Shown here: positions 799-11,442 of the stretch, piece by piece
Layout of the letters: each line of letters begins with the position of its first letter
Numbering within the stretch: the first letter of the stretch is position 1
From: Hyphomicrobiales bacterium
GTDB taxonomy: Bacteria > Pseudomonadota > Alphaproteobacteria > Rhizobiales > Rhizobiaceae
DNA: 64,000 nt
Direction: 5' to 3'
Assembly: GCA_900473915.1 (NCBI GenBank)
Contig: UCNG01000011.1
Span: 358,976 to 422,975 of the forward strand
Program-made: the position numbers and the translations under genes
The notes under the pieces: generated by a model
Seen by the model: the letters and a program-made list of their open reading frames with translations, nothing else
Told to the model about the DNA's origin: nothing
The model's database searches: none

Positions 799-2478
799 TC
801 AGTTCGCTCCTATGAGAATGGATTTTTCTTTTTCGGTCGCGGCCACATAAGCGGCGACCTGACGGTCGATTTCGGCCTGGGGGAGACCAAGCTCCTCGCC
901 CAGCAGGGCGCCGACTTTTGCGGCAGCGCGAGCGGAGGCATCGCGCGCCATCAGGCGAGCACGCATACGACGCGACAGCACGTCATCGATTGTCCGGGCA
1001 AGCTCATGCCGAGCGGCGTAGACGACTTCGCCGCCGGTATAGGGCAGTCCTTCCACCACCGGTTCGGCGAGCTCAGGACGAGCAGCCATCAGATCGCTGA
1101 CGAAACGCGCTTCCGTGCCATAGCGTTCGCCCAGATGCGCTTCCATGCCGCCGGAGGCCACGATTGCTTGCGCGTCATAACCGGCGGCACCCAGCAGAAA
1201 TGCTTTTTTCGTGGTACAGCGACGACGATCGCCGAGTACTTTTGCAGCAGCATCTACCGTCTGCTCGGCCATATGGCGTGACGTCGTCAGCTTGCCGCCT
1301 ACAATCGTGACAAGGCCATCGGGCGCAACATGCACGGAATGGTCGCGCTTGACATCCATGGTGCTGCCGCCCGACGAAGCGGCGACCAGCGGACGGCAAC
1401 CGGCAATGCTGCCAACGACATCATCCGGCGTCAGGTCGATATTGAGCGCGCTGCACGCGCCCTCGATCAGAAAATCAAGCTCGCGGCGCGTGCAATGCAC
1501 ATCATCCAGATCGCCCTGATAATCCTCGTCGGTCGTGCCGAGATAGGAGACATTGCCCCAGCGCGTGATGGTTGCGCGGCGACTGCGCCCAGGCACCGGC
1601 ACGGTCACCGTGCAGTCGTTGCGGATTTTTAGCCAGGGGATCGCCACGTGAACGCCCTTCGCAGGGCGCACATGCAACGGCTTTTCGCCATTCTTGCCAA
1701 GCCCCATCCAGTCGCGCAGCCATACGCCTGTCGCCATGATGACGGTCTTAGCGCGCACCCGGATTTCCCTGCCCTCGACGGTGTGAACGATAGCGCCATC
1801 CACCCGGCCCGAGCTGCGGGTAATCTCGGCTACCTTCGAATGGTTGAGGACCGTGCCCCCGTAAAAACCGGCAGAGCGGGCAAGCGCCAGCGTCAGGCGT
1901 GCGTCATCGACGCGGGCATCGAAATACATGAGGCCGCCGCGCAGATATTCGTCCTTGAAGGTCGGACAATGTGCAAGCACTTCGGCAGCGGTTAGCTTCT
2001 GGTGCAGAATACCTTCGCGCCAGCCGCCAGCCAGATCATAGGTCCAAAGCAAGCCCTCAAACGCCTTGGCGAAGCGCGCATCGAACACACCATCCCTTTC
2101 AAGAATGGGGAACAGGAAAGGCAGGCGCTGCACAAGATGGCTGGCATTGCGACGCAGGCGCTGCCGCTCCAGGAGGGAATGACGAACCAGGCCAAGATTG
2201 CCCTGCTCGATATAGCGCAAGCCGCCATGCACCATCTTGGAGGATTTCGATGATGTGCCCGATGCAAAATCATCCTTCTCAACCAGCGCAACACGAAAGC
2301 CGCGCAAACTGGCGTCAAAAGCGCAGTAAGCGCCTGTCACGCCGCCGCCAACGATCAGAATATCGTAGGTTTCAGTGGCAAGACGGTCTTCCTGTTCCGA
2401 ACGGTTCAGCCGCAGCGGCTCGGTGCGGATCATCCGGGCGCGATCCTTGTCCGCGCGCCGGGAGCGCAGATTCAGCAT
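799..2478 (-). CDS. GlpD-family FAD-dependent glycerol-3-phosphate dehydrogenase/oxidase
   Basis: 559 aa. An N-terminal Rossmann FAD motif (IVGGGVTGA, residues 42-50) and the GlpD signature SSKMVHGGLRYIEQ (79-92) place it in the glycerol-3-phosphate dehydrogenase family, which oxidises a polyol phosphate to a keto compound and passes electrons to quinone. GGKLTTSRHMAEQTV is the conserved C-terminal FAD contact region, followed by the alpha-helical DAO_C domain. The start has AGGAG 7 bases upstream and lies 12 bases after the kinase stop. Kinase plus GlpD-like dehydrogenase is the classic pair for phosphorylating and then oxidising a polyol. Erythritol-type EryB is also a GlpD relative, so the substrate need not be glycerol-3-phosphate. 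Confidence 0.88.
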   Translation of the reverse strand: MLNLRSRRADKDRARMIRTEPLRLNRSEQEDRLATETYDILIVGGGVTGAYCAFDASLRGFRVALVEKDDFASGTSSKSSKMVHGGLRYIEQGNLGLVRHSLLERQRLRRNASHLVQRLPFLFPILERDGVFDARFAKAFEGLLWTYDLAGGWREGILHQKLTAAEVLAHCPTFKDEYLRGGLMYFDARVDDARLTLALARSAGFYGGTVLNHSKVAEITRSSGRVDGAIVHTVEGREIRVRAKTVIMATGVWLRDWMGLGKNGEKPLHVRPAKGVHVAIPWLKIRNDCTVTVPVPGRSRRATITRWGNVSYLGTTDEDYQGDLDDVHCTRRELDFLIEGACSALNIDLTPDDVVGSIAGCRPLVAASSGGSTMDVKRDHSVHVAPDGLVTIVGGKLTTSRHMAEQTVDAAAKVLGDRRRCTTKKAFLLGAAGYDAQAIVASGGMEAHLGERYGTEARFVSDLMAARPELAEPVVEGLPYTGGEVVYAARHELARTIDDVLSRRMRARLMARDASARAAAKVGALLGEELGLPQAEIDRQVAAYVAATEKEKSILIGAN

Positions 2479-2490
2479 TTCAACTCCTGT

Positions 2491-4014
2491 TTATTCATAA
2501 TGACCGGATCGGATGCGTGCGACTTCCTCATTCGTGAGGGAGTGCCATCGCGCTCTGCGGCCCTGTCTTTCCGCTTCGCTGGTCTTGGGGATGAAAAGAT
2601 TGCCTTCGGGCAGCGTGGCGCGCGCTTCCGCAAGGTCGCCCCAGAGCAAGCCACCGCTGCCTGCCAGAAAGGCGGCGCCCCGCAGGCTGGCGCGGTCCTG
2701 ATCCGCCATGCGCCGCACAGGCACACCGCTGAGATCAGCCTGCAGCTGAAGCAGCGTATCGCTGGACGAAAGCCCGCCACCTGCCACCACCTCCCGTACA
2801 GGGACTCCCGCAACTTCTGCACTCGCCTCCGCACAGGAAACGACCGAATGGGCAATGCCCTCCAGAATGGCGTGAGCAAGATGCGCGCGGCTGTGCGCCA
2901 TCGAAAGCCCGGTAAGCGATGCCCGTCCATCTGGAACGATGTTCGGCTGACGCAATCCCGTCAGGGTTGGCATGAAGAAAAGACCATCGGAAGACGGCAC
3001 TGCCGCAGCCAGTTCACTGATCTCCTTGGCATTTTCGAACCAGCGCATTTCGTTGCAGAGCCAGTTGAGCGCCGATCCTGTGGTCGCGGCATAGGTCTCG
3101 ACCGCGAAATGCGAGATGTTTTCGCTCCGCCAGGCCGTCATGGTGAAAGTTGCTTCATAGAGGCCAGGATTTTTCGGCGTCTGCTTTCCGATCACAAGAT
3201 CAACGAAGCTACCCGTGCCATGCACGCACATGGCCTGCCCCGCATCGTGACAGCCAAGACCGACAAGACCGCCGAGCTGATCGCCGCAAGACGCCTTGAT
3301 CGGCACGCGGATACCGAGAATATCCTGGCGCGTATAACCGAAATCGTCAGCGTCCTGTTTCAGCTCGGGCAGCAACTCCAGCGGAAAATCCTGTGCCTCA
3401 ACCCAGTCAGTGAAATAACGGTTCTCACCGAGAATATAGGCGCCGGCAGAGGTCGCATTGGTGGGCGTGGTGACGGCTTTGCGTTCTTCTGACAGGTTCC
3501 ACAGCAGCCAAGTGTCGACGGTACCGAAGGCGAGCCTTTTCGCTTTCCACGCCTCGCGTACAGCGGGCGTTTCCTGCATATGGCGTGCCGCCCACAGATA
3601 GATCGCCCGTCCGCCAACGGGACGTCCTGCGAGCGGCACGAGTTTCGCGTCCCATATGGCCCCCAGTGGTTTCAGCTCTTCGGCATAGCGCGAATCCTGC
3701 CAGACCATGGCCGGAACCAGCGCCCGGCCCGTTTCCGTATCCCACAGAACACCGGTCGCGCGTTGCGTAGCGATGGCCATTGCAGCAATTTCCACGCCAG
3801 CATCACGCGCTGCAGCAATCGTTTTGCCGCACACTTCGATAGTCTTTTGCAACAGAACATCAGCGTCCTGCTCCACCACATTGTGACGCGGCGAAGAGAC
3901 GGCAAGCGTCGTGTAATTGACCGCGGAGACCGAGCCGTCGGCCGCGACAAGCGCGGCCCTGGTTCCGGACGTTCCTTCGTCAATGGCCAGAATGGCCTGT
4001 TTGCGTCCGTTCAC
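2491..4014 (-). CDS. FGGY-family carbohydrate kinase, GlpK-like
   Basis: 507 aa from a GTG start at 4014. A longer frame begins at 4101 but would overlap the upstream transporter gene by 73 bases. The GTG sits 6 bases after a strong GGAGG, which decides the start. The N-terminal ATPase phosphate-1 motif DEGTSGTR (residues 12-19), a central GDQLGGLVGLG segment and a C-terminal AGGGLSSSDTLL segment are typical of FGGY kinases. These phosphorylate a sugar alcohol or sugar at a terminal hydroxyl with ATP. The gap to the transporter stop is 14 bases and to the GlpD-like gene 12 bases. The glycerol-kinase-like architecture and neighbours suggest a polyol substrate, but specificity is inferred only. 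Confidence 0.88.
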   Translation of the reverse strand: MNGRKQAILAIDEGTSGTRAALVAADGSVSAVNYTTLAVSSPRHNVVEQDADVLLQKTIEVCGKTIAAARDAGVEIAAMAIATQRATGVLWDTETGRALVPAMVWQDSRYAEELKPLGAIWDAKLVPLAGRPVGGRAIYLWAARHMQETPAVREAWKAKRLAFGTVDTWLLWNLSEERKAVTTPTNATSAGAYILGENRYFTDWVEAQDFPLELLPELKQDADDFGYTRQDILGIRVPIKASCGDQLGGLVGLGCHDAGQAMCVHGTGSFVDLVIGKQTPKNPGLYEATFTMTAWRSENISHFAVETYAATTGSALNWLCNEMRWFENAKEISELAAAVPSSDGLFFMPTLTGLRQPNIVPDGRASLTGLSMAHSRAHLAHAILEGIAHSVVSCAEASAEVAGVPVREVVAGGGLSSSDTLLQLQADLSGVPVRRMADQDRASLRGAAFLAGSGGLLWGDLAEARATLPEGNLFIPKTSEAERQGRRARWHSLTNEEVARIRSGHYE

Positions 4015-4028
4015 ATTATCCTCCGTTG

Positions 4029-5444
4029 TTACCGGTCGCCTTCGAATTGCGGCGCATTCGGCTCGTCGTCCGGGCTGACCTTGGTACGGGTCGGGTCCCA
4101 TTGGATGACCGAGCAGATGATGCAGGCGATCAGCGGAACCGCCGACAGGATCAGGAATGTCGTGCCAAGACCGTAGGTCTCGCGGAAGATCGGGAAAACC
4201 AGCAGTCCGAGCGCCGCACCCATGGCACCGAGCGCACCAATGATGCCGTTGGCGCCTGCACGCAGTTCGCTGCGGAACGAGAGCGATGAAAGGCTCTTGC
4301 CATTTGCGCCGGGACCACCGGAATGAAACAGGATGAACAGCGACGGCACAATCACCGCGAGCCAGGTCGGCATTGTGTCATGGAACAGGCCCATGATGAC
4401 CAGCATGACAAAGACAGCACCAAAGCCGATGGCGGAAGCCTTGCGCAGGCCAAGCACGCGTCCGATGACCGGGGATGAGAAGCCACCGATAATGCCGAAC
4501 ACGTTAAACACCAGCGTGCCCATCATGGCATAGAGAAAATCCTTGCCGAACAATGCCGCACTGATGAGCGGCAGATACCAGCCCACAGCAAAATACTGGA
4601 TCGACTGCCCGATCTGGACGGTCGCGGCCAGAATGGTGCGCGGCAGATAGATGCCTCGGAAAATCAGGGCGACATTGGCAATACCACGACGGGCCTGATT
4701 GAGAACCGGCAAACGATCTTCCGGCAGAGCGGCAACGAAATCCCTATGATAGATGCGGGTCATCGCACGGGCGGCTTCTTCCAGCCTTTCCTTGCGGGCA
4801 AGCCAGATCGGGCTTTCAACCATGAACACCAACTGCAGCATCATGATTGCGAAGGCGAAGACACCGGTTGCCGCAACCGAATAGCGCCAGATCGAGTCAC
4901 CTACGTCCCAGCTGTAGAACAGCATGGCCAGGAGCACGTTTGTACAAACGGCTGTGTACCAGATGCCCTGCCAGGTGTTGAGACGGCTGCGCAGGCGTGC
5001 TGGCGTGAACTCGGCGAGCACAGCCATGGCGATGGCAAAGTCGATACCGTAGGCAGCACCCACGAAGAAACGCCCCATAAGGATGACTTCATAAGAATGG
5101 GCCGTCATCACCAGTACCGCGCCAATGAGCGCGACAAGCTTTGCGAAAACGAGCGGGCGCATCCGGCCCCAACGGTCGGCGATCCAGCCGCCAATCGGAT
5201 TGAACGCAATCGATACCCATGAGGCGAAGGATGTCATCAGCGCAACCTGCGCCGCATCCAGTCCCAGATCGCGTGTCATCGGCCCAAGCCCTGCGCTCAG
5301 CGCCGAATTGGCAAAGGCATCAAGGAACAGCCCGCCTAGGGCAAGCCACCAGATGATACCGGCGCGGCCTCGAATACCGTCATTCGCATCAATGTAGGAA
5401 ATAACATCCGGTACGCCCCTCAGGGCTATTTTGCTTCCGTGCAT
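4029..5444 (-). CDS. MFS transporter (metabolite:H+ symporter type)
   Basis: 471 aa inner-membrane protein with about 12 hydrophobic helices. The MFS loop 2-3 motif is seen as GGWIADRWGRMRP (residues 85-97), and a helix-4/5 segment with GRFFVGAAYG is followed by AEFTPARLR, typical of metabolite/sugar proton symporters. The ATG at 5444 has GGGAGG 9 bases upstream. It is the first gene of the minus-strand operon (transporter, kinase, GlpD-like, FAD oxidase), so it most likely imports the substrate of the kinase. A 26-base palindrome 64-89 bases upstream is a likely operator. The transported molecule cannot be told from sequence. Confidence 0.85.
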   Translation of the reverse strand: MHGSKIALRGVPDVISYIDANDGIRGRAGIIWWLALGGLFLDAFANSALSAGLGPMTRDLGLDAAQVALMTSFASWVSIAFNPIGGWIADRWGRMRPLVFAKLVALIGAVLVMTAHSYEVILMGRFFVGAAYGIDFAIAMAVLAEFTPARLRSRLNTWQGIWYTAVCTNVLLAMLFYSWDVGDSIWRYSVAATGVFAFAIMMLQLVFMVESPIWLARKERLEEAARAMTRIYHRDFVAALPEDRLPVLNQARRGIANVALIFRGIYLPRTILAATVQIGQSIQYFAVGWYLPLISAALFGKDFLYAMMGTLVFNVFGIIGGFSSPVIGRVLGLRKASAIGFGAVFVMLVIMGLFHDTMPTWLAVIVPSLFILFHSGGPGANGKSLSSLSFRSELRAGANGIIGALGAMGAALGLLVFPIFRETYGLGTTFLILSAVPLIACIICSVIQWDPTRTKVSPDDEPNAPQFEGDR

Positions 5445-5507
5445 TACGGCGTCCTCCCAACGTCGCTATGACATCTGCAAGAGGACTTATCCGGATTCCA
5501 GACGCAA

Positions 5508-5533
5508 TAAGACCATCCTTGCAGATGGTCTTA
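5508..5533. promoter_or_regulatory. Palindromic operator candidate upstream of the polyol-type operon
   Basis: A perfect 10-base inverted repeat, TAAGACCATC and GATGGTCTTA, separated by 6 bases. It lies 64-89 bases before the ATG of the MFS gene (start 5444). There is no T-run after it, so a regulator site fits better than a terminator. No regulator gene is adjacent on this side; it may lie beyond the left edge. Confidence 0.5.
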
Positions 5534-6553
5534 AATCTTCAGTCTGCATTTACGGTTATAACGCGTTTTCAAGAGGAGTCAATGCGCCGCTTTTATCGCT
5601 GACCACCATGCGTCAATAGCATTATCGACAATTCTCTCGGCTCTGAATTGTGTCGAAACGCTCAGGATCCAAATAGCTTAGTTCACAGAAAGAATGGCTT
5701 CTACCTCGCGCTGCCATCCTCATTACATGATTGCCAATCGGCAATCTTCGGCCTTTAATACCTGGAGTGGAGAGATATCCGGCCCTTCCTTACTCCCCAG
5801 TAGACGCTTCCTCGACTGTGATGACCTATTACAAAAAATAAAAACTGTACTTGCTTACAAAACGGAATTGTAATCGGATCGGCGCTTTTCAGGACTTTGT
5901 GAAATACAATCCAATCCCCGATGTCGGACGCAGAGCCGACATTCTGCGATCGGCAAAATAGGGTTTCTGCCATATGTTTTTCGATAGGCTTCAATTCAAC
6001 AACAATAGGAGCTCATTCCATCGAGCCATTGCAAAATAACGTATTAAACTTTTGCTGTATAAAAACTTGGGTGCAACGTCACGAGTACGGAGATTTCGCG
6101 ATAGCCTTCACTTTTGAGCCCGCGGATGCGTTTTTGTCCATCCCACGCGGACTGTCTTAATGACTGGATCGTTCGGCCGAGATTGACGCTAAGCATATAA
6201 TCGGCGTATTCGGCCCTCGGACGGCCCCGCTCGAAATGTTACGGCATTGCGATCTCGACGACCGCAATGCCTCCTTTCGAGAGATAGCCTGCGATCTGGG
6301 AGGCGGAGAAGTTGTTTCTTTTCCGGAAATTAAGCCGAGTTCGTCTGAACAATTGGTTGAATTCTTACCATATACTATGTATGGATCTGCTATTCGAAAG
6401 CCAAACCGGCTTTTCTGGAAAGGGAGCACGACGATGCAGGACATCATCCTTCGCCCCGTTGGGGTTTCAGCCTAGCTCAGTCCTTACTGACGGATGCTGA
6501 TTGAACTGTTGGTTACGCCAGCAGACGATATCCCATATCCAGAGTTTTATATC
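5534..6553. other. Gene-poor, AT-richer intergenic stretch
   Basis: About 1 kb between the palindrome and the rtcB start. It contains only short overlapping frames (60-96 codons) on both strands, with no ribosome-binding site, no recognisable domain and no consistent codon use. The base composition is visibly more AT-rich than the operons on the left. I could not identify a gene, RNA or intact mobile element. It may be an eroded insertion boundary of the rtcB-prfH island, and it should contain the promoter of that operon. Confidence 0.4.
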
Positions 6554-7771
6554 ATGGGCAATCATACTGAGAGCTTCGGCTCTTTCAGTGCTGGAGGAGC
6601 ATCTCCGGCAACTCTTCGTCGTTTTTATTCCGAGCAAAGCTGGATTGAAGGTGAAGCGCTTCGACAGCTTGAAGAAATGTCACGCCTTGATGGAGCAAAG
6701 GCGCTTGCTGCTTTTCCCGATTTGCATCCGGGAAAATACGGCGCAACGGGCGTTGCACTTCTTTCTCATCGCCTGCATCCGCTGTTGATCGGCAACGATA
6801 TCGGTTGCGGGATGGCTTTATTCGCACTCGATTTGCCATTGCGTAAGCTACGCATCGATAAGGCTGAACAGCGACTAAGAGAATTGGAATACCAACAAGT
6901 CGGCGATCCAGAGGCCGCGCTATCTGCTCACGGCCTTCCGCACGATCTCTTCCCCGAAGCCTTGGGAACTATTGGCGGTGGCAACCACTTTTGCGAATTG
7001 CAGGCCGTTGATCAGGTTTTCAGGTCGTCCTCGACACATTTGATCAACGATCAATGTCTGTATCTTCTCGTTCATTCGGGTTCTCGCGGCGTGGGAGCTG
7101 CGGTATTTGCAGAATTCCTCGCCACTAACGAAAAACCGAACGCTGGATTTGAGTTAGACGATCCCTTTGCAGCCCAGTGGATGGCGATGCATGATCAATG
7201 TGTCGCTTGGGCAGCGCTTAACCGCCGCTTCATCGCGGAACGCGCTGCACGAGCACTACGGGCGGATGCTATACTGGTGGCAGACGTGCCACATAATCTG
7301 GTGCGCGTTCGGTCGGAAGGGATTGTGCACCACAAAGGTGCGGCGGCGGTTGAGTGCGGCGATCTCGTTCCTATTGCCGGATCAAGAGCAAGCCTCAGTT
7401 ATATCGTGCGGGCTCGGGAAGAAGTGCATCAGTCTCTCGGCGCAGTTTCTCACGGAGCGGGGCGTAAATTTGATCGGGCCAGCATGCACGGACGTGTCGG
7501 CGCTTCACGTTCACACCGAGAGCAGTTGGCGCGCAACGGCTGGGGTGGACGGGCAATCTGCGATGACCGCTCACTCCTGATTGAAGAAGCGGCCTCCGCT
7601 TATAAAGACTGCAGCCAGGTCGTGATGGATCTGGAGGCGCATCGGTTGGTGGAATGCGTTGCCGCCATGCGTCCGCTCATTACTTACAAGAAAGCCGTCG
7701 ATCGACCGGGAAATTCTCGCGAAATGGCTGATAGGCGGAACAAAAAGGAGAAGCGTCATGAAAAGCGTTGA
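6554..7771 (+). CDS. rtcB: RNA ligase, RtcB2 type (PrfH-coupled)
   Basis: 405 aa from the ATG at 6554; an in-frame ATG at 6494 would add 20 unrelated residues, and PrfH-associated RtcB proteins characteristically begin MGN. RtcB joins 3'-phosphate (or 2',3'-cyclic phosphate) and 5'-OH RNA ends using GTP and Mn2+. The active site is complete: NDIGCGM (81-87, Cys85), GGGNHFCE (141-148), HSGSRG (174-179), VPHNLV (245-250) and SHGAGR (299-304), whose His300 is the expected guanylylated nucleophile. The stop overlaps the prfH start by 14 bases. Families in this arrangement are linked to repair of ribosomes whose 16S decoding-centre RNA was cut by toxins. The ribosome-binding site is weak, so the start is moderately certain. 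Confidence 0.88.
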   Translation: MGNHTESFGSFSAGGASPATLRRFYSEQSWIEGEALRQLEEMSRLDGAKALAAFPDLHPGKYGATGVALLSHRLHPLLIGNDIGCGMALFALDLPLRKLRIDKAEQRLRELEYQQVGDPEAALSAHGLPHDLFPEALGTIGGGNHFCELQAVDQVFRSSSTHLINDQCLYLLVHSGSRGVGAAVFAEFLATNEKPNAGFELDDPFAAQWMAMHDQCVAWAALNRRFIAERAARALRADAILVADVPHNLVRVRSEGIVHHKGAAAVECGDLVPIAGSRASLSYIVRAREEVHQSLGAVSHGAGRKFDRASMHGRVGASRSHREQLARNGWGGRAICDDRSLLIEEAASAYKDCSQVVMDLEAHRLVECVAAMRPLITYKKAVDRPGNSREMADRRNKKEKRHEKR

Positions 7772-8369
7772 TCTGCTTATATCTTCGGGGAGCGGGCCTG
7801 CGGAATGCCGTATTGCAGTCGGGCGTTTCATTGACATTCTTTCCAAAGAGGCATCCAATCGGGGTTGCCTGTTCGAAGTTACAGCCGAAATTGCCGCCGA
7901 TAAACATGGCCCCAAATCCGCCTTGGTAACTCTGGAGGGAGATACGTCTGACCAGATTGCGCAAGAATTTTGCGGAACAATAAGGTTGGTGTTCAAAAGC
8001 CCTGTTCGGCCACAACATAAGCGGCAGAACTGGTTTATATTGGTGAGCCGGATCACCAAGCCAACAATAGAAGAAATTGTCATTCAGCCAAATGACGTTC
8101 GCTTTGAAACTTTGCGTGCTGGCGGCCCAGGCGGTCAGCACCAGAACACAACCGACAGTGCTGTACGTGTTGTTCATATTCCAACGGGCATCCAGCTAAT
8201 CGCACGCAATGAGCGATCTCAGCATCGAAACAGGGCAACAGCGCTGGAGCGCCTTGGAATGGTCCTGAAGCATCTGCAGGAGGACCAGATAGAAGAGGCC
8301 AAGGCCGCACGTCATCTTGAAAACCGCAACATCGAACGCGGAAATGAGGTGAAGAGCTATCGTTTCTGA
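7758..8369 (+). CDS. prfH: Peptide chain release factor homolog PrfH
   Basis: 203 aa. The catalytic GGQ of class I release factors is present (GGPGGQHQN, residues 122-130), followed by the basic tail region (NERSQHRN, 151-158). The stop-codon-reading domain of RF1/RF2 is replaced by a shorter N-terminal domain, as in RF-H. The ATG at 7758 has AAGGAG 7 bases upstream and lies inside the end of rtcB (14-base overlap), so the two are translationally coupled. The established role for the family is releasing the nascent chain from ribosomes with a damaged decoding centre so that RtcB2 can re-ligate the cut 16S rRNA. A strong hairpin follows the stop. Base composition resembles rtcB and differs from flanking operons. 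Confidence 0.93.
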   Translation: MKSVDLLISSGSGPAECRIAVGRFIDILSKEASNRGCLFEVTAEIAADKHGPKSALVTLEGDTSDQIAQEFCGTIRLVFKSPVRPQHKRQNWFILVSRITKPTIEEIVIQPNDVRFETLRAGGPGGQHQNTTDSAVRVVHIPTGIQLIARNERSQHRNRATALERLGMVLKHLQEDQIEEAKAARHLENRNIERGNEVKSYRF

Positions 8370-8380
8370 TCGATGTAAAA

Positions 8381-8406
8381 GAATGGCCCGGAAATCCGGG
8401 CCATTC
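8381..8406. terminator. Hairpin after prfH, probable terminator
   Basis: GAATGGCCCGGA and TCCGGGCCATTC form a perfect 12-base stem around AA (effective loop about 4 bases), 11 bases after the prfH stop. No T-run follows, so termination may depend on stem strength alone. It also lies just past the end of the convergent pseudogene and could act on both strands. Confidence 0.6.
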
Positions 8407-8421
8407 CGTCTATTCGGGCTT

Positions 8422-8906
<485 letters not shown>

Positions 8907-9027
8907 ACATCGCTGGTTGGCTTTTCAGGCTCCCGCAATGGCCAGAACGATGCGGCGTCCGCCGAAGGGCGAGAGCCATCATTCGGACCACATTCGTGTT
9001 CATCTCTGACCGCTCCTGCCCACGTCA

Positions 9028-10122
9028 TCAGGGGTTGCTGCTAGGCCGAACGGCCAGGGCTGGCTCGACCAACCCGGCGACTTCGCGTACGAAGATACTG
9101 GGATCGCTATGCTCGGAGGCGAGATTGGTCAGCACAACGACCGTCAACCCGTCATCCACATAGCGCGAGAAGGAGGTTGTAAAGCCCTGCCACGCGCCGT
9201 CATGCTCGATCACGCGATGCCCATTGACAAAATGGATTTCCCAGCCGAAGCCATATCCTCCTCTCGGACATTGTCCCTGATGGGGGTAAGGCGTCCACAT
9301 CTTCTCCAGCGATTCCGCCGTTAGCAGAGTTTCGCCGTAAAGCGCCCGGTCCCAATGTTCGATGTCGCGGATAGTAAAATACATCGTGCCGTCTGCGGTC
9401 GCGTTGAAGGTTGGCGAGACCCATTGCTGGTTCTGGAGTTTGCCGTCAACGATTTCATAGCCGGACGACCGGTTGAGAACGATGTCGGTGTCCGAAACGA
9501 TCCGCGTCGATTTCATGCCCAACGGCGCGAAAATATTCTGTTTGAGAAATTCGCCGTAGGGCATCCCGGTAACGCGGTGAATGAGGACACCGAGCAGGAC
9601 AAAATTCGTATTTTCGTATGCCCACCCTTCACCCGCCTGAAAATCGATGGGCAGCCGTGTGATCGCCGCCACCAGCTCATTTTCGGAATAATCGCGACGG
9701 ATATCGAACGGACCGCCCGGTTTCTGCAATTCGGGCGTGTCATAGGATGAAAGCCCCGAAGTGTGCGACAGCAGATTGGCAATCTTGATTGGTTTCCAGT
9801 TCTCCGGCGCTTCGGGAAAATACTGCGCGATGCTGTCATCCAGCCCGATTTTTCCTTGCTCCACCAGCATCATGATAGCAGTAGCAGTAAAGGACTTGCC
9901 AACAGAACCCGATTGCAGAACGCTGTCCACCGTCATCGGCACATTCAGCTCGACATTTGCCAGACCATAACCCTTTGCCAGAATGATGGAGCCGTTCCTG
10001 TAAATCCCGAGCGCCAACCCCGGAATGCGCTGGCGCTTCATCTCTGCGGCTACATATCGATCGATGGTCTGGACTTTTTCAGCATCAAGGTGCGGCAGGT
10101 CACTGGTGGAAATGGATGCCAT
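9028..10122 (-). CDS. Serine hydrolase, class C beta-lactamase / D-aminopeptidase-like
   Basis: 364 aa from the ATG at 10122, which has AGGAG 7 bases upstream; an upstream ATG at 10203 lacks one. The three penicillin-recognising motifs are present: SVGK (SxxK, Ser73), YEN (169-171) and HDG (307-309, replacing KTG). HxG in place of KTG is common in class C-like esterases and D-amino-acid peptidases rather than true lactamases. No clear signal peptide precedes the domain with this start, so it may act in the cytoplasm. It is the last gene of a minus-strand peptide-uptake operon and lies 58 bases after the restored end of a D-amino-acid-dehydrogenase-like gene. That suggests hydrolysis of imported D-residue-containing peptides or amides (inference). 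Confidence 0.82.
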   Translation of the reverse strand: MASISTSDLPHLDAEKVQTIDRYVAAEMKRQRIPGLALGIYRNGSIILAKGYGLANVELNVPMTVDSVLQSGSVGKSFTATAIMMLVEQGKIGLDDSIAQYFPEAPENWKPIKIANLLSHTSGLSSYDTPELQKPGGPFDIRRDYSENELVAAITRLPIDFQAGEGWAYENTNFVLLGVLIHRVTGMPYGEFLKQNIFAPLGMKSTRIVSDTDIVLNRSSGYEIVDGKLQNQQWVSPTFNATADGTMYFTIRDIEHWDRALYGETLLTAESLEKMWTPYPHQGQCPRGGYGFGWEIHFVNGHRVIEHDGAWQGFTTSFSRYVDDGLTVVVLTNLASEHSDPSIFVREVAGLVEPALAVRPSSNP

Positions 10123-10239
10123 GATTACTCCTGAAACGAATGTCAACAACATTGGAACCCTCGCCTCGAATGGTCGGCGCCTATGAAAACCGGGATATCG
10201 CATAGGGGGCCGGATCGGTGAACGGCGCTTCCCCCGTCA

Positions 10240-11442
10240 TCAATTCGGCCAGCAGCCGACCCGTGACAGGCCCAAGGTCAAGCCGTGATGATTATGGCCG
10301 AAGCCGAACCACAAGCCCTTGTGCTTAGTGCCCGCGCCGATGACAGGGCGCATATCGGCAAGGCAGGGCCGCGCACCCATCCACGGCACGGGTTCGATGC
10401 GCTTATTGAGCGGAAAGGCGCGCCGTGCAAGCGGCTCCACGAGGTCCAACTGACTATAATTTGGACGGCTGTCGCGAGGCGCGAATTCGATTCCCGTTAA
10501 AAGCCGGACGCCCTGACGCATGGGAGACAACACAAAGCCGCCATCGGCATCGACAATGGGACGATTTAGGATAGCTTCGCCTTGCGCTGAAAAATGCACG
10601 TGATAACCACGTTTGACCGCGAACGGCATGCTGTATCCCAATTTCGCAGCCAGATCGATCGACCAGGGACCGAGCGCGATCACCGCCTCCCTGGCATGGA
10701 ATTCTTCTCTCTCGTTTTTCAGACGCCACACCTCGCCATCCCGCTCCAGTTTCGATACATCCGCCTGACAAAAGCGGCCGCCCTTTTGCAGAAACGAGGC
10801 CACATAGCTTTTCACGAGTGCTCCGGGATCGCGCACGGTGGCAGGGTCCAACCAATGAATACCACCGACCAGTTCTGAAGAAAGCTGTGGTTCCCGTTTC
10901 CGCAACGCGGCGCCATCAAGCAATTCGTAGCGCAGCCCATAGGGAACCAGCGCCTCGGTAGATGTTCTGGCCTTTTCAAATGCGGCTTCGTTGCGAAATG
11001 CCTCGATCCAGCCCGTCTTGCGCAATTCCAGCGATACGCCCGCTTCCTGCGCCAGCAGTTCATGCTCTGAGACCGAACGGCGAATGAGCGGCCACATGTC
11101 GGTCGTGGCCCTCGCCAATTGTTTGGGCGAGGATTCCCGCCAGAAGCGCCAGAGCCACGGCGCAATACGCGGCAGATATGACCAATCGAAACGCACGTCT
11201 GCCGAGCGGTTCAATCCGTAACGCAGCAAGGTCCCGAACTCGCGCGGCACCCCATAGGGCACCACGCTCGATCTTTCGATCAGCCCTGCATTGCCGTAGC
11301 TGGTCTCTTCTCCTGGTTCCCTGCGATCGACAAGCACGACGGACCTTCCGCGCTTTTGAAGATGAAGCGCGACGCAAACGCCGACTATGCCCGCCCCAAG
11401 CACCAGAACATCCGCCCGTGTCGCCGCAGCAGCGCCTGTCAT
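10240..11442 (-). CDS. DadA-like FAD-dependent D-amino acid dehydrogenase, frameshifted near C-terminus
   Basis: The start is the ATG at 11442 with GGAGA 9 bases upstream. It has an N-terminal FAD Rossmann motif GAGIVG (16-21) followed by a DAO-family oxidoreductase fold resembling DadA, which oxidises D-amino acids to 2-keto acids plus ammonia. The end is abnormal: after GHNHHGLTLG the frame gives an unrelated tail and stops at 10240. In the next frame the expected family ending continues (PVTGRLLAELMTGE and on to YAISRFS) to a TAG at 10181-10183. One missing C in a GGGCC run near 10268-10272 explains it. This is either a true frameshift or an assembly error. It lies 52 bases after the M81 gene. 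Confidence 0.8.
   Translation of the reverse strand: MTGAAAATRADVLVLGAGIVGVCVALHLQKRGRSVVLVDRREPGEETSYGNAGLIERSSVVPYGVPREFGTLLRYGLNRSADVRFDWSYLPRIAPWLWRFWRESSPKQLARATTDMWPLIRRSVSEHELLAQEAGVSLELRKTGWIEAFRNEAAFEKARTSTEALVPYGLRYELLDGAALRKREPQLSSELVGGIHWLDPATVRDPGALVKSYVASFLQKGGRFCQADVSKLERDGEVWRLKNEREEFHAREAVIALGPWSIDLAAKLGYSMPFAVKRGYHVHFSAQGEAILNRPIVDADGGFVLSPMRQGVRLLTGIEFAPRDSRPNYSQLDLVEPLARRAFPLNKRIEPVPWMGARPCLADMRPVIGAGTKHKGLWFGFGHNHHGLTLGLSRVGCWPN

What the first reader, a model, noticed from the sequence alone, without database searches (positions are those of the whole stretch)
6554..8369. rtcB2-prfH ribosome-repair operon in a Brucella/Ochrobactrum-type genome
The RNA ligase has all catalytic motifs and overlaps prfH by 14 bases, so the two are made together. 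Knowledge of the RtcB2-PrfH pair links it to rescue of ribosomes whose 16S rRNA is cut in the decoding centre by colicin-E3-like toxins. The pair looks more AT-rich than its neighbours and is flanked by gene-poor DNA and an RtcB-family relic, which suggests an acquired defence island against ribosome-targeting toxins or contact-dependent nucleases.
Basis: partly seen in the sequence, partly recalled or inferred. Interest (0 to 1): 0.75.

Follow-up and report, generated by a model that had tools for sequence, protein, structure and literature searches.

The report
Ribosome-repair operon with ribosome-sensing leader
A known two-gene bacterial kit for mending cut ribosomes sits here behind a conserved mini-gene and folded RNA that probably switch it on when ribosomes get stuck; the pair itself is ordinary, but the shared switch, known before only in Pseudomonas, appears to be widespread.

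Summary
rtcB2 (6554-7771) and prfH (7758-8369) overlap by 14 bases, pass the curated RtcB2 and PrfH cut-offs, and the ligase groups apart from other RtcB families. The protein pair is a known ribosome-repair module.

The new part is upstream: a 13-codon uORF (6434-6475) inside a folded leader whose outer stem (6413-6419 with 6538-6544) covers the rtcB2 ribosome-binding region. A 13-15-codon uORF precedes rtcB2 in 80 of 81 loci (the 80 best relatives plus the window), against 9 of 435 other genes, and in 29 of 29 Pseudomonadaceae loci. The fold covaries and has no Rfam match. One Pseudomonadaceae leader has the Q3 and F4 codons reported for PA5471.1, the armZ leader peptide, a mode of control that a 2025 review calls apparently unique to MexXY. 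It looks instead like a widespread feature of rtcB2-prfH operons.

The mechanism is inferred: folding supports it weakly across relatives and hardly in the window. "Accessory" is supported (2 of 35 genus genomes); "defence island" is not.

The parts
6413..6419 (+). P1 5' strand (UUCUGGA), just upstream of the uORF Shine-Dalgarno
   Evidence: Pairs with 6538-6544 (6 of the 7 pairs are in the model); 5 of 6 modelled pairs show changes on both sides in 46 aligned elements; found again by RNAalifold in the Roseibium group; own duplex -10.04 against -7.11 kcal/mol for swapped partners over 80 loci
6420..6427 (+). Shine-Dalgarno of the uORF (AAGGGAGC)
   Evidence: Sequence; conserved in relatives
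6433..6445 (+). Pa hairpin holding the uORF start codon (GAUG/CAUC)
   Evidence: little variation, so weak covariation
6434..6475 (+). uORF / leader peptide MQDIILRPVGVSA, 13 codons + stop
   Evidence: uORF in 80 of 81 loci against 9 of 435 control genes
6454..6464 (+). P2 hairpin CCCC-GUU-GGGG inside the uORF
   Evidence: mostly invariant pairs, one of them often unpaired
6467..6500 (+). P3 outer helix (6467-6471 with 6496-6500) and inner helix (6478-6481 with 6486-6489); the uORF stop lies between the two 5' strands
   Evidence: All 9 pairs (5 + 4) show changes on both sides in A2
6506..6524 (+). P4 hairpin (CUGUUGG/CCAGCAG)
   Evidence: All 7 pairs show changes on both sides in A2, 84.7% of cells paired
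6538..6544 (+). P1 3' strand (UCCAGAG), 9 nt before the rtcB2 start, overlapping (by eye) its only Shine-Dalgarno-like bases
6554..7771 (+). rtcB2, RNA ligase RtcB family, 405 aa
   Evidence: TIGR03073 over cut-off; tree; active-site motifs aligned
7758..8369 (+). prfH, peptide chain release factor H, 203 aa, GGQ motif, no domain 1
   Evidence: TIGR03072 over cut-off; best solved match 7sa4 PrfH
8425..8763 (-). relic: C-terminal piece (113 aa) of another RtcB-family gene, convergent with prfH
   Evidence: 94-98% identical to the convergent gene of B. cytisi, which the RtcB2 model also touches weakly (22.8 bits)

Best explanation
This is a complete RtcB2-PrfH ribosome-repair operon under a leader-peptide switch. 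PrfH frees peptidyl-tRNA and helps split 70S ribosomes whose 16S rRNA is cut at the decoding centre, and RtcB2 reseals the 30S (published for E. coli; inferred here). Working ribosomes translate the 13-codon uORF quickly, and between passages the leader folds, with P1 masking the rtcB2 ribosome-binding region. A ribosome that can start but not elongate (cut, or drug-bound) stays on the uORF start, covers the P1 5' strand and keeps P1 open, so rtcB2 is translated, and prfH with it through the 14-base overlap. Shown: the genes, the overlap, the conserved uORF, the covarying fold (P1, P3, P4; Pa and P2 mostly invariant), and kinship of the ligase with a Pseudomonadaceae locus whose leader has the reported features of the armZ leader peptide. 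Inferred: that the switch acts on translation here, and that its signal is damaged or stalled ribosomes.
For: Gene identity. prfH on the same strand in 80 of 80 relatives, within 80 nt of the rtcB2 stop in 78; I attribute the other two (L064, L079) to a mis-framed start set by my script. uORF 80/81 against 9/435 control genes and 35/1620 shuffles. Model R1 matched 46 of 81 sources (1.67 Mb), once each, every match ending at an rtcB2 start, and 2 of 151 family genomes, both just upstream of rtcB2. Covariation: 24 of 30 pairs with double changes, 0/500 shuffles, on an alignment fitted to the structure; an unfitted group: 11 of 28 pairs, 94.2% paired, 0/500. P1 own -10.04, swapped -7.11 kcal/mol. 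No terminator-like site in 6420-6553. Pseudomonas precedent: stalling on leader PA5471.1 raises armZ (passages of PMC13041342 and PMC12057347); the L129 leader has Q3 and F4 as reported and its ligase scores 612.9 bits with TIGR03073.
Against: Predicted opening of the rtcB2 start by a ribosome on the uORF start is small: mean unpaired 0.41 to 0.50, higher in 58 of 80; window 0.60 to 0.62; a ribosome at codon 4 gives 0.38 and at the stop 0.43. With the P1 5' strand shuffled the free value is 0.50 already, which fits P1 masking but shows how small the effect is. In the first alignment of 18 near relatives, pairs with double changes (199/500) and pair types (411/500) did not exceed shuffles. R1 missed 35 of 81 sources. 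The Shine-Dalgarno:uORF pairing I suspected is not supported in alphaproteobacteria (z -0.13), and P1 is not supported in gammaproteobacteria (z -0.5). The leader is not universal: none seen in L084 and L085 (both alphaproteobacteria), L086 (start only approximate), L099, L101, L122, L123, L124 or L158, and an ambiguous 12-codon ORF in L125. The 80 relatives are the best-scoring 80 of 582, many of them close kin. No expression data were examined.
Confidence: 0.6

Rival explanations
1. Autoregulation: the leader fold is bound by RtcB2 or PrfH (or is itself a substrate), so the proteins repress their own synthesis when no cut ribosomes occupy them; the uORF is secondary.
For: The multi-helix fold was matched only before rtcB2 in the sequences searched.
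Against: The uORF is held in frame at 13-15 codons in 80 of 81 loci and has a Pseudomonas precedent. I saw no decoding-site mimic by eye; no test was made.
Confidence: 0.15
2. Transcription attenuation as proposed for armZ in P. aeruginosa: the uORF decides between a terminator and an antiterminator.
For: Proposed for PA5471.1 (PMC12057347 and PMC13041342 passages). Pseudomonadaceae leaders carry longer T runs (20 of 29 with 5 or more).
Against: No terminator-like site in the window leader; T runs of 5 or more in only 10 of 81 of the alphaproteobacterial set.
Confidence: 0.15
3. The leader is a constitutive translation enhancer or coupling device: the fold brings the uORF stop near the rtcB2 start so that terminating ribosomes restart there.
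For: The uORF stop lies mostly about 75-92 nt before the rtcB2 start in the set, with P3 and P4 folded in between.
Against: P1 would cover the site where the ribosome must bind; the Pseudomonas leader is reported to hold expression down (deletion raises ArmZ).
Confidence: 0.1

Closest known systems
RtcB2-PrfH operon of E. coli ATCC25922 (PMC9223846: abstract, introduction, discussion and passages read)
   Same: Same two protein families, same order and tight coupling; an E. coli plasmid copy (L081) also carries a 15-codon uORF. The ATCC25922 locus itself was not fetched
   Different: RtcB2 only 38-39% identical to E. coli copies; the E. coli leader differs in sequence, and P1 is not supported statistically in gammaproteobacteria
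armZ (PA5471)-prfH (PA5470) of Pseudomonas aeruginosa with leader peptide PA5471.1 (PMC12057347 and PMC13041342 passages)
   Same: RtcB-like ligase beside prfH, preceded by a short leader ORF (13 codons in L129; the published length is recalled, not seen); published as induced by ribosome stalling
   Different: ArmZ is published as an anti-repressor of MexZ; control proposed as transcription attenuation. The window-type leader has a different fold and no terminator-like site
RtcB-RtcA RNA repair operon regulated by RtcR (PMC7790460: search listing only)
   Same: RtcB-type ligase; regulated by RNA damage
   Different: Other RtcB-family proteins separate with 99/96 support; here the control is a cis leader, and no rtcR was looked for

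Membership tests
RtcB2 (TIGR03073) | Score over the curated cut-off | tested here: met
   298.9 against 271.8 bits
RtcB2 (TIGR03073) | Groups apart from other RtcB families | tested here: met
   24 RtcB2 rows against 20 others split at 99/96; one outgroup row has a very long branch and three had a stop sign dropped
RtcB2, stricter equivalog NF007153 | Score over the curated cut-off | tested here: not met
   371.1 against 407 bits; this equivalog is not claimed
RtcB RNA ligases | Active-site motifs (GCG, GNHF, HSGSRG, HN, HGAGR) | tested here: met
   Aligned with 2epg; all but HN also with 4dwr/1uc2; roles of the residues recalled
RtcB RNA ligases | Ligase activity on cut 16S rRNA | not testable with these tools
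   Needs biochemistry
PrfH (TIGR03072) | Score over the curated cut-off | tested here: met
   196.1 against 166.65 bits
PrfH (TIGR03072) | GGQ motif kept, N-terminal domain 1 absent | tested here: met
   203 aa, aligns only from about residue 112 of RF2; GGQ
Leader-peptide control of the armZ/PA5471.1 type | Short leader ORF with its own Shine-Dalgarno upstream of the RtcB2 gene | tested here: met
   6434-6475; 80 of 81 of the set
Leader-peptide control of the armZ/PA5471.1 type | Intrinsic terminator between leader ORF and gene | tested here: not met
   No site in 6420-6553 by a simple pattern scan
Leader-peptide control of the armZ/PA5471.1 type | Induction by stalled ribosomes | not testable with these tools
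   Needs reporter assays
Anti-phage defence island | Known defence genes near by | tested here: not met
   0 PADLOC matches for 4 proteins; 6 neighbours catabolic, transport or hydrolase-like; the rest of the window was not tested

The most novel reading that the evidence does not exclude
The leader-peptide switch thought unique to Pseudomonas MexXY control is the ancestral sensor of the RtcB2-PrfH ribosome-repair operon across Alpha- and Gammaproteobacteria. In alphaproteobacteria it is an undescribed structured RNA in which a damaged ribosome, parked on a 13-15-codon uORF, directly unmasks translation of the enzymes that will repair it: a closed damage-sensing loop read by the damaged object itself.
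Probability: 0.45. Interest if true: 0.8.

Novelty: new variant of a known kind. Interest (0 to 1): 0.6.

Why it matters
How cells know that their ribosomes have been cut is, to my knowledge, an open question, and the repair operon has been studied mostly for what it does, not for how it is switched on. A conserved uORF plus fold, with uORFs shared from Rhizobium to Pseudomonas, suggests that the sensor is the ribosome itself, gives a simple reporter to test it, and recasts armZ control of a clinically important efflux pump as an inherited ribosome-repair switch.

Tried and rejected
Defence island: no PADLOC match for 4 proteins, catabolic neighbours. Known RNA family: no Rfam match in window 5400-9100 even at E up to 5. 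Universal Shine-Dalgarno:anti-Shine-Dalgarno switch inside the uORF: noted by eye; not supported in alphaproteobacteria (z -0.13; Rhodobacterales, n=5, alone z -2.89), supported in the gamma set of 37 (z -2.09, mostly near-identical Pseudomonadaceae sequences). P1 in gammaproteobacteria: noted by eye in E. coli, not supported as a group (z -0.5). Hairpin just inside the rtcB2 coding region: striking by eye, only 3 consensus pairs. Recent transfer by plasmid: no near plasmid match.

Exceptions: L064 lacks a 12-16 codon uORF (21 codons instead) and is counted as the one miss of 81. Eight further loci without a leader (L084, L085, L086, L099, L101, L122, L123, L124) and L158 are listed under evidence against; they are not part of the 81 or the 29. 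L100 begins at a contig end and could not be judged. L125, with an ambiguous 12-codon ORF, was included in the gamma set. L047 was missed by the first pattern and found after GGGG was added to it; the controls were run with the wider pattern.

Paper searches in which I saw no description of a leader upstream of rtcB2-prfH outside Pseudomonas: (open-licence papers only; mostly listings seen).

Full report
OBSERVATION. rtcB2 runs from ATG 6554 to 7771 and prfH from ATG 7758 to 8369, overlapping by 14 bases. RtcB2 scores 298.9 bits with TIGR03073 (cut-off 271.8) and PrfH 196.1 with TIGR03072 (cut-off 166.65); the stricter NF007153 is missed at 371.1 against 407. The RtcB motifs align with solved RtcB proteins, and PrfH's best solved match is a chain named peptide chain release factor H, 7sa4. 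In a tree of 44 proteins the 24 RtcB2 rows split from 20 other RtcB-family rows with 99/96 support, and the window is sister to Brucella cytisi (one outgroup row, the B. cytisi convergent gene, has a very long branch, and three outgroup rows had a stop sign dropped).

CONTEXT. No whole genome is held for the window. DNA identity with B. cytisi covers 6348-8707 only (85%), not the flanks within the 10 kb held. Of 35 genomes in the B. cytisi genus, rtcB2 is in 2. Ten of 35 hold the left-flank transporter; alignment with the window ends at 5.56-5.60 kb in nine and 5.9 kb in one. The right flank (9030-11400) gave only short pieces in 28 of 35 genomes (at most 425 bases, 64-89% identity). So the module is accessory and lies at the edge of DNA not shared with these genomes. 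It is not in a recognisable defence island: PADLOC gave no match for 4 proteins, and the six neighbours tested look like a glycerol-3-phosphate dehydrogenase type oxidoreductase, a sugar kinase, a transporter, a beta-lactamase-fold protein, an oxidoreductase and an M81 metallopeptidase. The relic at 8425-8763 corresponds to an RtcB-family gene lying convergent to rtcB2-prfH in B. cytisi.

THE LEADER. DNA similarity to relatives continues upstream of rtcB2. That stretch holds a 13-codon uORF, MQDIILRPVGVSA, at 6434-6475 behind AAGGGAGC. With fixed rules (ATG, Shine-Dalgarno-like bases, 12-16 codons, stop 55-140 nt before the gene) a uORF is found in 80 of 81 loci, against 9 of 435 other long ORFs in the same loci and 35 of 1620 shuffled leaders; the narrower 13-15 codon rule also gave 80. 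The 81 are the window and the best 80 of 582 relatives, nearly all titled as alphaproteobacteria (L035 is titled Bacillus subtilis and is probably mislabelled); many are close kin, so they are not 81 independent cases. The one miss, L064, has a 21-codon version. Peptide sequence drifts between groups while length stays at 13-15 codons.

THE FOLD. Single-sequence folds and alignments suggested one plan: P1 (6413-6419 with 6538-6544) enclosing Pa at the uORF start, P2 inside the uORF, P3 with an inner helix around the uORF stop, and P4. On the first alignment of 18 near relatives, the number of pairs with double changes (8; 199/500 shuffles as high) and of pair types (411/500) did not exceed shuffles, though percentage paired, cells with double changes and the covariation score did (0/500). 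A model built from these matched 46 of 81 sources, once each, every match ending at an rtcB2 start; 35 sources were not matched. In the alignment of the 46, 24 of 30 pairs show changes on both sides, 92.3% of cells pair, 0/500 shuffles; that alignment was fitted to the structure. As a check, 18 Roseibium-group leaders were aligned by sequence only, and RNAalifold found P1, Pa, P2, a hairpin where the inner P3 helix lies, and P4: of the 28 pairs that I kept out of its 34 (two small local hairpins dropped), 11 show double changes, 94.2% of cells pair, 0/500 (one search is void). P1 strands pair better with their own partner (-10.04) than with other loci's (-7.11 kcal/mol). Rfam has no match in the window stretch. 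In 151 genomes of one family the model matched twice, both just upstream of rtcB2 (with strict filters); rtcB2 was in 6 of 151. Of the four not matched, three have the uORF and one (L158) does not.

BEYOND THIS SET. rtcB2 was over cut-off in 11 of 398 genomes drawn from the phylum, 6 of 369 from the class of G227, and 29 of 298 Pseudomonadaceae-family genomes (the family is inferred from a PrrF match). All 29 of the last have a 13-codon uORF. E. coli, Klebsiella, Proteus and Methylosinus loci of the plasmid collection have uORFs of 15, 13, 15 and 14 codons, and L093, L094, L097, L098 have 14, 14, 13 and 12-14. No leader was seen in L084 and L085 (Skermanella, Novosphingobium), L086 (Nonomuraea, start approximate), L099, L101, L122, L123, L124; L125 has an ambiguous 12-codon ORF; L100 is cut by a contig end. 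In the gamma set of 37 the uORF's Shine-Dalgarno pairs with its own codons better than with shuffles (z -2.09), but most rows are near-copies.

LINK TO ARMZ. In P. aeruginosa, armZ (PA5471, RtcB-like) beside prfH (PA5470) is controlled by the leader peptide PA5471.1; stalled ribosomes raise armZ, by proposed transcription attenuation (passages of PMC12057347 and PMC13041342). The second paper places glutamine at codon 3 and phenylalanine at codon 4. I infer that L129 is P. aeruginosa or a close relative. [quoted passage not shown] the data here say that a leader ORF of this kind belongs to rtcB2-prfH operons widely. Baranov 2006 (PMC1586002, passages) noted the coupling of the two genes; 'leader' and 'secondary structure' do not occur in its text.

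MECHANISM. I propose translation control: P1 masks the rtcB2 start, and a ribosome held at the uORF start keeps P1 open. Constrained folding moves the right way but little: mean unpaired 0.41 free, 0.50 with a ribosome at the uORF start (higher in 58 of 80), 0.38 at codon 4 (higher in 30), 0.43 at the stop (higher in 47); with the P1 5' strand shuffled 0.50 free and 0.52 with a ribosome; the window moves only from 0.60 to 0.62. No terminator-like site lies in the window leader, and T runs are shorter than in Pseudomonadaceae. The repair chemistry is taken from PMC9223846, whose abstract reports that loss of rtcB2 and prfH sensitised E. coli to colicin E3 and that high-copy rtcB2 alone, or both genes, brought resistance back.

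VERDICT. Protein pair: known, a new member. Leader: a new variant of leader-peptide control, well supported as a conserved element, mechanism unproven.

Noticed in passing
L082 (Klebsiella pneumoniae IncC plasmid), 1453-3164: rtcB2-prfH with its uORF sits on a conjugative plasmid just before a sul1 resistance gene; described only.
   Followed up: no
   Followed up: no
window 6573-6612 and alignment A4: Hairpins just inside the rtcB2 coding region look conserved by eye (GAGAGC..GCTCT), but alignment gave only 3 consensus pairs.
   Followed up: partly
L035: A record titled Bacillus subtilis carries an RtcB2 66% identical to the window's and a leader like that of Pseudochrobactrum; probably a mislabelled or contaminated assembly.
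   Followed up: no
   Followed up: no
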